A model generated the notes under the pieces. It worked only from the letters and a program-made list of their open reading frames with translations. It ran no database searches and was not told where the DNA came from. Source: Gordonia bronchialis DSM 43247 (GTDB lineage: Bacteria > Actinomycetota > Actinomycetes > Mycobacteriales > Mycobacteriaceae). Taken from it: DNA of 64,000 nt. The stretch covers positions 1,860,001 to 1,924,000 of the forward strand of contig NC_013441.1 of NCBI RefSeq assembly GCF_000024785.1. The letters are read 5' to 3'. Below are positions 36,922 through 39,684 of the stretch, in pieces. The number at the start of each line of letters is the position of its first letter. Within the stretch, counting starts at the first letter, position 1. The translations under genes were made by a program, and so were the position numbers.

Positions 36922-38425
36922 ATGATCACTCATCACGTTCGCACCCGTCGTAGTTCCGAGGATTTCCCGCAGTCCGAGCATCTCGCCCAGAAGATCGCGG
37001 AGGTCGCTGCCGATCCGGTGGCCGTTCCCGACGAGACCACGGAGATGGTGATCAACCGGATCATCGACAACGCTGCGGTGAGTGCGGCGTCGGTGATCCG
37101 TCGGCCGGTCACCACTGCGCGGCAGCAAGCGCTGGCGCATCCGTCCACGCCGGGAGCGAGCGTTTTCGGCGTCGGCGGCACCTACTCGCCGGAGTGGGCG
37201 GCCTGGGCCAACGGTGTCGCCGTGCGCGAACTCGACTTCCACGACACCTTCCTCGCCGCCGAGTACTCCCATCCGGGGGACAACATCCCGCCGCTCGTCG
37301 CGGTCGCCCAGCATCTGGGAATCGGCGGTGCCGATCTGATCCGCGGGCTGGCCACCGCCTACGAGATCCAGATCGACCTCGTGCGCGGTATCTGTCTGCA
37401 CGAACACAAGATCGATCACGTGGCACACCTCGGGCCGTCGGTGGCCGCGGGTCTCGGCACCATGCTCGGTCTGGATGGGGAGACCATCTACCCGGCCGTC
37501 GGGCAGGCCCTGCACCTGACCACCGCCACCCGGCAGTCGCGCAAGGGCCTCATCTCCAGTTGGAAGGCCTACGCGCCGGCCCACGCCGGCAAGATCGGCA
37601 TCGAGGCGGTCGACCGGGCCATGCGCGGTGAGGGCGCGCCCGCCCCGATCTGGGAGGGTGAGGACGGTGTGATCGCCTGGCTGCTCGGCGGGCCGGGGGC
37701 AACCTACGACGTCGCGTTGCCGGCGCCGGGTGAACCCAAGCGCGCGATCCTCGACAGCTACACCAAAGAGCACTCCGCGGAGTACCAGAGCCAGGCGCCG
37801 ATCGACCTCGCCCGTCGGATGCGCGAGAGGATTTCCGACGTCGACGACATCGAGTCGATCGTGCTGCACACCAGCCACCACACGCATGTGGTCATCGGAA
37901 CGGGATCGGGAGACCCGCAGAAGTTCGATCCGACGGCCAGCCGAGAAACCCTGGACCACTCGGTGATGTATATCTTCGCGGTTGCCCTGCAGGACGGTAC
38001 CTGGCATCACGAAGCCTCGTATGCGCCCGAACGCGCGAACCGCCCCGACACCATCGAGTTGTGGCGCAAGATCTCCACGGTCGAGGACCCGGAGTGGACC
38101 CGCCGGTATCACTCCACCGACCCCGCCGAGAAGGCATTCGGGCGCCCGGGCGGTCATCACCTTGGGCAACGGTGAGGTCATCACCGACGAGCTCGCCGTC
38201 GCCGACGCACACCCGTTGGGCGCCCGGCCATTCGCGCGCAAACAGTACGAGGCCAAGTTCGCCACAATGGCCGACGGCGTGGTGGAACCCGAAGAGCAGC
38301 AACGGTTCCTGGACATCGCCACCAGTCTGGCCGAACTCGGTGCCGGTGAGTTGGGTGCGCTCAACGTCGCCGTGCGCCCGACGGTTCTGGACAAGGCGCC
38401 GACGACGGGTAAGGGGATCTTCTGA
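36922..38425 (+). pseudogene. prpD: 2-methylcitrate dehydratase, frameshifted
   Basis: Codons from 36922 to ~38142 read as PrpD (MmgE/PrpD family) up to PAEKAFG, then the frame runs into a stop at 38175. The C-terminal ~93 residues (GARAVITLGNGEVITDELAV ... TTGKGIF) continue in the next frame to 38425. Skipping one base at C38143 in the GGGCGCCCGGGC run restores a ~500-aa protein of normal length. The enzyme would dehydrate 2-methylcitrate in the methylcitrate cycle. A single-base error in a GC-rich self-complementary run is possible, so true inactivation is unproven. Its restored stop overlaps the next start (TGATG). Confidence 0.88.
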
Positions 38426-39684
38426 TGTCACTGTTCTCCAGTGGTGTCACCGACACCGACAAGCGCAAGGCGTTGCGCGCCGGTCTGAGATCCGGTGAGC
38501 TGCAACGGTGGCCGGGGGCCTTCTCGCCGCTGGTGGCCAAGCTCGTCGCCGACATCGGTTTCGAGGGGGTGTACGTCTCCGGCGCCGTACTCTCGGCGGA
38601 CCTGGGTCTGCCCGACATCGGATTGACCACACTGACCGAGGTCGCCACCCGTGCTGGGGCGATCGCACGGGCGACCGATCTGCCCGCGCTCGTCGACGGC
38701 GACACCGGATTCGGCGAGCCGATGAGTGCGGCCCGGACCGTCGCGATGCTGGAGGACGCCGGCCTGGCCGGTTGTCATCTCGAGGATCAGGTGAACCCCA
38801 AGCGGTGCGGGCACCTCGACGGCAAGGACGTGGTCCCCGTCGGCGACATGCTCAAGCGACTGGCCGCAGCCGTGAACGGCCGGCGCGACGAGAACTTCGT
38901 CATCTGTGCGCGCACCGATGCCCGCGCGATCGAGGGTCTCGACGCGGCCATCGATCGGCTCCCGACCATCGTCGCCGCCGACATGCGACGCAGCCGCGGG
39001 CTGGACCCCGTTGCACCACACCACGGTTTGGGTTACGCGGAGAACTTCCTGAATATGTGTTTCGGGGAGGTGCCCGACCCGGCAATTGTCCGGGCATTCG
39101 CGAAGTCGATGGTGCTCTACGCCGAACACAGTTTCAATGCATCCACCTTCGCCGCGCGCGTCGTGACCTCGACCCAGTCGGATATCTACAGTGCCGTGAC
39201 CGCGGCGATCGGCGCGCTGAAGGGGTCGCTGCACGGCGGCGCCAACGAGGCGGTCATGTACGACATGATCGAGATCGACCGTCCCGAACTGGCCCGGGCA
39301 TGGCTCGACGCCAAGTTCGAGCGGAAGGAGAAGATCATGGGCTTCGGTCACCGCGTGTACAAGAACGGCGATTCCCGGGTGCCGACGATGAAGGCCGCAT
39401 TCGCCGAGGTCGCAGCACATGTGGGGGACAGCAGGTGGCTCGGGATCTACACCGAACTCGAGGCGGCGATGGCGCAGCGCACCGGCATCAAACCGAACCT
39501 CGATTTCCCCACCGGTCCCGCCTATCACCTCATGGGTTTCGATATCGCATCATTCACGCCGATCTTCGTGATGAGCCGCATCACGGGGTGGACCGCCCAC
39601 ATCATGGAACAGGTTGCCACCAACGCACTGATCCGACCACTGAGCCAGTACTCTGGTGTACCGCAGCGGGTACTGGGCGGCTGA
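38425..39684 (+). CDS. In-frame chimera: N-terminal methylisocitrate lyase (PrpB) joined to C-terminal 2-methylcitrate synthase (PrpC)
   Basis: 419 aa. Residues 1-178 are PrpB: FEGVYVSGAVLSADLGLPDI, LVDGDTGFGEP, the active-site loop NPKRCGHLDGK and ICARTDAR. From LPTIVAADMRRSRGL (~179) to the end it is PrpC, keeping the citrate-synthase catalytic residues: His in LKGSLHGGANEAV, His in MGFGHRVYK and Asp in NLDFPTG. Compared with usual proteins (~300 and ~380 aa), about 120 residues of PrpB (including its C-terminal substrate Glu region) and ~140 of PrpC are missing. The simplest origin is an in-frame deletion of ~0.8 kb between prpB and prpC. Probably inactive for both reactions; an assembly collapse must be ruled out. 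Confidence 0.9.
   Translation: MSLFSSGVTDTDKRKALRAGLRSGELQRWPGAFSPLVAKLVADIGFEGVYVSGAVLSADLGLPDIGLTTLTEVATRAGAIARATDLPALVDGDTGFGEPMSAARTVAMLEDAGLAGCHLEDQVNPKRCGHLDGKDVVPVGDMLKRLAAAVNGRRDENFVICARTDARAIEGLDAAIDRLPTIVAADMRRSRGLDPVAPHHGLGYAENFLNMCFGEVPDPAIVRAFAKSMVLYAEHSFNASTFAARVVTSTQSDIYSAVTAAIGALKGSLHGGANEAVMYDMIEIDRPELARAWLDAKFERKEKIMGFGHRVYKNGDSRVPTMKAAFAEVAAHVGDSRWLGIYTELEAAMAQRTGIKPNLDFPTGPAYHLMGFDIASFTPIFVMSRITGWTAHIMEQVATNALIRPLSQYSGVPQRVLGG

What the first reader, a model, noticed from the sequence alone, without database searches (positions are those of the whole stretch)
38425..39684. Natural or apparent PrpB-PrpC chimera in the methylcitrate operon
One uninterrupted frame joins the first ~178 residues of methylisocitrate lyase to the last ~240 residues of 2-methylcitrate synthase. 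The junction (EGLDAAIDR to LPTIVAAD) is in frame. The active-site loop of the lyase and all three citrate-synthase catalytic residues survive, but each enzyme lacks a large structural part. I know of no described protein of this type. It is most easily explained by a ~0.8-kb deletion, either in the genome or in assembly.
Basis: partly seen in the sequence, partly recalled or inferred. Interest (0 to 1): 0.8.

Follow-up and report, generated by a model that had tools for sequence, protein, structure and literature searches.

The report
Decayed B12-independent propionate and methionine genes
The odd joined protein is most likely the debris of a deletion that merged two neighbouring propionate-burning genes in Gordonia bronchialis, part of a wider loss of its vitamin-B12-independent enzymes, and not a new kind of enzyme.

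Summary
At 38425-39684 one frame of 419 residues joins PrpB residues 1-178 to the last 241 residues of PrpC. Near-identical intact proteins exist: PrpB P0124 (178/178 over the shared part), PrpC P0005 (98%), PrpD P0254 (99.5%). A second chimera, P0001, differs by one residue and sits on a 2,549-base contig. Of 58 other Gordonia genomes 43 have prpB and prpC divided by a stop and 15 lack both at these scores. Best reading: a real deletion of about 0.8 kb and a probably dead protein. It does not stand alone: prpD beside it is frameshifted, and metE, 8 kb away behind a cobalamin riboswitch, has lost about 1.25 kb. The B12-dependent counterparts MutAB and MetH are whole here and found in 59 of 59 genomes. 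Across the genus, absence of prpBC and of canonical metE coincides in 14 genomes, with several independent changes. So the finding is decay of a linked B12-independent module.

The parts
38425..39684 (+). prpB-prpC deletion chimera, 419 residues
38425..38958 (+). 5' part from prpB (methylisocitrate lyase residues 1-178 of 304)
   Evidence: 100% identical to residues 1-178 of intact P0124
38959..39684 (+). 3' part from prpC (2-methylcitrate synthase, last 241 of 377 residues)
   Evidence: 98.3% identical to intact P0005 residues 137-377
36922..38175 (+). prpD, broken: first ~407 residues, then out of frame to a stop
   Evidence: intact near-identical protein P0254 of 500 residues
38123..38422 (+). 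3' end of prpD in another frame (last ~100 residues)
   Evidence: tblastn frame change at 38123-38142
35346..36929 (-). prpR-type regulator, open frame
   Evidence: 84% identical to the regulator beside prpDBC in G047; NCBIfam RamB matched below its cut-off
39817..43206 (+). pyruvate carboxylase, open frame of 1129 residues
47676..48697 (-). metE (B12-independent methionine synthase), broken: residues ~230-645 missing, out of frame
48848..49049 (-). cobalamin riboswitch upstream of metE
   Evidence: Rfam RF00174, 84 bits, gathering score 31.5

Best explanation
In the lineage of the G. bronchialis type strain a deletion of roughly 0.8 kb removed the 3' 41% of prpB and the 5' 36% of prpC and happened to join them in frame. 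The product is very likely inactive in both reactions. It is one of three lesions (prpD frameshift, prpB-prpC deletion, metE deletion) in a linked set of genes that give B12-independent routes for propionyl-CoA disposal and methionine synthesis. Because B12-dependent MutAB and MetH are present and a B12-synthesis gene is there, selection on the set is relaxed. Shown here: the lesions in the sequence, intact near-identical proteins elsewhere, no second prpB, prpC or metE found in this genome, and whole B12-dependent counterparts. Inferred: that the deletions are real in the organism, that the chimera is dead, and that B12 sufficiency is why the loss is tolerated.
For: P0001 is a second sequence of the same chimera with one residue different, on a 2,549-base contig. 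Intact PrpB P0124 is identical over the 178 shared residues, including an unusual residue at 92. Intact PrpC P0005 and PrpD P0254 are 98.3% and 99.5% identical. 43 of 58 other Gordonia genomes have prpB and prpC, and in 43 of 43 a stop divides them; none has the chimera. No second copy in the genome: next best 39% for PrpC and 34% for PrpB; metE occurs only as two pieces. Of 34 non-overlapping gene placements on the window only prpD and metE change frame, and the third damaged place is the chimera. Methylmalonyl-CoA mutase matches in 59 of 59 genomes and MetH in 59 of 59; CbiC in 58 of 59 including this one. Absence of prpBC and of canonical metE coincides in 14 genomes (15 lack each); on a MetH tree 7 of 9 independent pairs agree, none oppose. 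All 15 prpBC-lacking genomes have only a ~45% paralog of the regulator, while the 3 prp-bearing genomes tested have the 76-84% ortholog; pyruvate carboxylase is found in 18 of 18. AlphaFold: chimera pLDDT 55.8, pTM 0.48 (30 rows); intact PrpC 75.8, 0.79 (15 rows).
Against: No reads could be inspected, and no source is shown for P0001, so it could be another deposit of the same strain. Point mutations hardly show relaxed selection: 2 of 148 near-invariant columns changed in the PrpC part (13 of 111 others have more), 1 of 111 in PrpB (23 of 120 have more), 1 of 267 in PrpD (53 of 120 have more), so the decay is young or weak. The metE deletion has no second sequence to support it. The regulator prpR still has an open frame. 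Only one B12-synthesis gene was tested.
Confidence: 0.83

Rival explanations
1. Assembly artefact: the 2009 hybrid Sanger/454 assembly lost 0.8 kb in prpB-prpC and 1.25 kb in metE and misread prpD; the organism has intact genes.
For: Intact near-identical proteins exist; the assembly is old and joined Newbler contigs with Sanger reads; the paper lists 264 pseudogenes and gives two unlike coverage figures.
Against: P0001 repeats the junction with a residue difference. The paper states an error rate under 1 in 100,000, 51.2x coverage in the text (7.98x Sanger and 23.2x 454 in its table) and correction of misassemblies. The damage falls on functionally linked genes and spares the other placed genes.
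Confidence: 0.1
2. A working chimeric enzyme: a citrate-synthase fragment or a new activity built from half a lyase and the catalytic half of a synthase.
For: Open frame kept, catalytic motifs present, few substitutions at conserved sites.
Against: 126 of 304 lyase residues and 136 of 377 synthase residues are gone. The model shows four strands in the lyase half and low confidence overall, unlike the intact synthase. It sits behind a broken prpD, and none of 58 other Gordonia genomes has it.
Confidence: 0.03
3. Loss of PrpB and PrpC is covered by other enzymes, so the methylcitrate cycle still runs: isocitrate lyase replaces PrpB as in M. tuberculosis, and another citrate synthase replaces PrpC.
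For: M. tuberculosis and M. kansasii lost PrpB, probably by separate deletions, and ICL takes its step in M. tuberculosis (PMC4428469, passages). The genome has citrate-synthase-like matches at 30-39% identity and an isocitrate-lyase-like match.
Against: PrpD is broken as well, and one search finds only this one PrpD in the genome (E up to 1e-100); this would need three replacements.
Confidence: 0.08

Closest known systems
Loss of methylisocitrate lyase (PrpB) in M. tuberculosis/M. canettii, M. kansasii and M. ulcerans (PMC4428469, passages)
   Same: Deletion or frameshift in the same actinobacterial prp operon, in a related genus, more than once.
   Different: In M. tuberculosis prpD and prpC stay and ICL takes the last step; here the deletion hits prpB and prpC at once, leaves an in-frame fusion, and prpD is broken as well.
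B12-repressed cluster prpR-prpD-prpC-Rv1132-metE of M. tuberculosis (PMC10924821, passages)
   Same: prpR, prpDBC and metE lie close together in this genome and in relatives, with a cobalamin riboswitch before metE here.
   Different: In M. tuberculosis the genes are expressed and repressed by B12; in this strain they are damaged, and in 14 of 58 other Gordonia genomes both prpBC and canonical metE are missing.
Longer PrpB-PrpC fusions in sequence collections (P0002, P0003, P0004, P0008)
   Same: One frame with PEP-mutase/ICL and citrate-synthase domains.
   Different: 651-692 residues, both enzymes largely kept; their borders look like stop loss, frameshift or a short deletion (my reading of the sequences). 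They match the chimera at 60-65% over the best segment. Their taxa are not shown, except that P0003 is filed under a plant.

Membership tests
Methylisocitrate lyase PrpB (TIGR02317) | Score over the curated cut-off over the full length | tested here: not met
   231 against 354.4 bits, profile 2-173 of 285
Methylisocitrate lyase PrpB (TIGR02317) | KRCGH active-site loop (role recalled) | tested here: met
   residue 126
Methylisocitrate lyase PrpB (TIGR02317) | Complete fold | tested here: not met
   residues 179-304 absent, a part that aligns to solved lyases; model of low confidence
2-methylcitrate synthase PrpC (NF010636) | Score over the curated cut-off | tested here: not met
   439.9 against 479 bits, profile 130-372 of 376
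2-methylcitrate synthase PrpC (NF010636) | His, His, Asp catalytic motifs (roles recalled) | tested here: met
   HGGAN 270, FGHRVYK 307, NLDFP 358
2-methylcitrate synthase PrpC (NF010636) | N-terminal part of the fold | tested here: not met
   first 136 of 377 residues absent, a part that aligns to the solved enzyme 3hwk
2-methylcitrate synthase PrpC (NF010636) | Enzyme activity | not testable with these tools
   needs a purified protein
Deletion pseudogene | Intact near-identical copies in kin | tested here: met
   P0124, P0005; 43 of 58 congeners with both genes apart
Deletion pseudogene | Raised rate of change at conserved sites | tested here: inconclusive
   PrpC part 2 of 148 columns, 13 of 111 others have more; PrpB part 1 of 111; PrpD 1 of 267
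Deletion pseudogene | Junction confirmed in reads | not testable with these tools
   no reads; P0001 is indirect support

The most novel reading that the evidence does not exclude
In Gordonia, prpR-prpDBC and the nearby metE behave as one B12-independence module that has been lost as a whole many times (at least 10 changes for prpBC and 8 for metE on a MetH tree of 59 genomes, direction inferred), and the G. bronchialis type strain is caught in the act, with three separate lesions and the regulator still in place. It would then depend on B12 for both methionine synthesis and propionate use, although it carries at least one B12-synthesis gene.
Probability: 0.5. Interest if true: 0.55.

Novelty: new member of a known kind. 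Interest (0 to 1): 0.4.

Why it matters
As a protein the chimera matters little, and annotators should not name it as an enzyme. As a marker it suggests that the reference strain of the genus has lost B12-independent propionate and methionine metabolism, which near-identical sequences elsewhere keep. Metabolic models built on this genome may then be wrong for the species. The repeated joint absence gives a natural test of when bacteria drop their B12-independent backups.

Tried and rejected
Rejected: a functional fusion enzyme (structure, missing parts, no kin with it). Rejected: a horizontally acquired fusion; the closest relatives of each half are Gordonia PrpB and PrpC, which lie in the same order in relatives. 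Rejected after a check: that congeners with a long shared open frame carry full-length fusions; one search shows a stop between prpB and prpC in all 43. Looked for homology at the deletion ends: relatives give at most about one shared base at the prpB/prpC join and about one at the metE join, so no repeat-mediated event is evident; the exact ancestral DNA was not at hand. The point-mutation test for relaxed selection was inconclusive.

Mistakes corrected: one search lost 13 PrpC rows because gapped alignment rows overwrote them; one search repeats it with 111. One search gave no tblastn output and one search showed the same cause; one search replaces both. One search read nine MetH rows in a wrong frame and its tree is void; one search replaces it. 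In one search the MetH of G009 is frame-broken (54 unreadable positions, long branch) and that of G045 is partial; both genomes bear both traits. My notebook first called the gene at 44288-45889 a propane monooxygenase; one search shows it is HpaB-like (4-hydroxyphenylacetate 3-monooxygenase).

Full report
What is there. The window lies in a genome of 5,290,012 bases in two contigs, the exact size published for Gordonia bronchialis type strain 3410T (abstract of PMC3035257). At 38425-39684 one frame of 419 residues joins the start of PrpB to the end of PrpC. Gene order is prpR (-), prpD, chimera, pyruvate carboxylase.

Where it joins. Intact PrpB P0124 (304 residues) is identical to the chimera over residues 1-178; intact PrpC P0005 (377 residues) is 98.3% identical from residue 137 on. 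In nine relatives the corresponding DNA distance is 776-893 bases, 776-809 in eight of them. No homology of more than about one base is seen at the join.

Real or artefact. P0001, found in the protein collection, is the same chimera with one residue different, on a 2,549-base contig; its cluster counts 7 sequences. No source is shown for it (the tool says it leaves out the source of proteins that the window encodes), so it could be another deposit of this strain. The published assembly used Sanger and 454 reads, with a stated error rate under 1 in 100,000, 51.2x coverage in the text (7.98x and 23.2x in the table) and 264 pseudogenes (passages of PMC3035257). I take the deletion as real at about 0.85-0.9.

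Kin. Of 58 other Gordonia genomes, 43 have strong matches to PrpB and PrpC and 15 to neither (counted by hand from its rows; G033 has a 46% PrpB-like match). In 43 of 43 a stop codon divides prpB from prpC, so none is fused; in one of them, G053, prpB itself is cut short. Among the 120 listed of 7,996 protein hits are four longer PrpB-PrpC fusions of 651-692 residues. No second prpB or prpC was found in the genome.

More damage. prpD changes frame between 38123 and 38142 and stops at 38175; a 500-residue intact protein, P0254, is 99.5% identical over the first 407 residues. On the minus strand, metE keeps residues 7-229 and 646-760 of a relative's 760 in the alignment, with about 1.25 kb missing and the frame broken; as encoded it ends after 235 residues. 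A cobalamin riboswitch (84 bits) lies upstream of metE. To see whether such damage is common here I placed genes of two relatives (G051, G047; eight stretches of 20 kb) on the window: of 34 non-overlapping placements at 70% identity or more, two change frame, prpD and metE, and the chimera is the third damaged place; two low-scoring placements near 62 kb look spurious.

What the damaged genes share. [quoted passage not shown] Their B12-dependent counterparts are whole here: two methylmalonyl-CoA mutase subunits at C1:2580243-2583787 (a match in 59 of 59 genomes, two or more in 57) and MetH at C1:2611689-2615210 (over the cut-off in 59 of 59, split in G009, partial in G045). CbiC, a B12-synthesis gene, is present here and in 58 of 59 genomes; no other synthesis gene was tested. 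In M. tuberculosis prpR, prpDC and metE form a cluster repressed by B12 (PMC10924821, passages).

Genus-wide. PrpD is found in 45 of 59 genomes at E up to 1e-100; the 14 without it are all among the 15 without prpBC, and G016 keeps PrpD alone. MetE gave no match in 15 of 59. G045 has it at a contig edge, and G049 has only a divergent copy (855 bits), which may well work; so I scored canonical metE absent in 15 of 58 others. I scored as present G040 (partial match) and G015 and G022, whose metE holds one in-frame stop. The two absences coincide in 14 genomes; G016 lacks prpBC only, G056 metE only. On a MetH tree of 59 rows (34 of 56 inner branches well supported) prpBC changes state at least 10 times and metE 8 times without the window. 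Of 9 independent pairs differing in prpBC, metE agrees in 7, opposes in 0, does not differ in 2 (sign test p 0.016; with the window scored as lacking both, 8 of 10, p 0.008). These counts cannot tell gain from loss, and linkage means that one deletion may take both. The PrpR ortholog is missing from all 15 prpBC-lacking genomes (only a ~45% paralog) and present at 76-84% in the 3 prp-bearing ones tested; pyruvate carboxylase is found in 18 of 18.

Does the chimera work? Its AlphaFold model has mean pLDDT 55.8 and pTM 0.48 from 30 rows; intact PrpC P0005 reaches 75.8 and 0.79 from 15 rows. The lyase half shows four strands of what should be an eight-stranded barrel (fold recalled). Catalytic motifs remain but large parts of both folds do not. 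Substitutions at near-invariant sites are few, so if it is a pseudogene it is a young one.

Phenotype in print. The type strain is BiOLOG-negative for propionic acid and did not grow on 0.1% propan-1-ol, while the species description lists propanol as used (passages of PMC3035257). This fits, but weakly: the same panel was negative for acetic acid and glycerol, and the strain grows on glycerol in another test.

Literature. Searches for PrpB-PrpC fusions (6 papers), Gordonia with methylcitrate or prpDBC (15 of 39 listed), G. bronchialis with propionate, metE with prpC and B12 (5 of 6 listed), Gordonia with metE and B12 and co-loss terms (12 of 88 listed) showed, by title and beginning of abstract, no paper on this chimera or on joint loss in Gordonia. 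I read the abstract and passages of PMC3035257 and passages of PMC10924821 and PMC4428469, nothing more.

Noticed in passing
window 47676-48697 (-), riboswitch 48848-49049 (-): metE is broken by an internal deletion of about 1.25 kb behind a cobalamin riboswitch; outside the finding's coordinates but probably part of the same story.
   Followed up: yes
window 36922-38422: prpD is frameshifted near its 3' end; an intact near-identical PrpD exists in the protein collection.
   Followed up: yes
window 23137-23222 (+): A second, weak cobalamin riboswitch match (33.3 bits, gathering score 31.5) upstream of a CbtA-type cobalt transporter gene at 23531-24325.
   Followed up: partly
L117 (G016:C4:104000-115500): G016 keeps open prpD and metE frames but no prpB, prpC or PrpR ortholog was found: another partial loss of the module.
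   Followed up: partly
L203 (G053:C99:127400-130300): prpB of G053 matches only residues 3-162 of 304 before a stop: a second congener with a damaged prpB.
   Followed up: no
G015:C1:2464478-2466739, G022:C9:281848-284106: metE of G015 and of G022 each holds one in-frame TGA, possibly two more decaying copies.
   Followed up: no
P0002, P0003, P0004, P0008: Longer PrpB-PrpC fusions in sequence collections, one filed under a sedge plant (Rhynchospora breviuscula), presumably bacterial contamination.
   Followed up: partly
L137 (G009 metH): MetH of G009 is split between two frames in its assembly.
   Followed up: no
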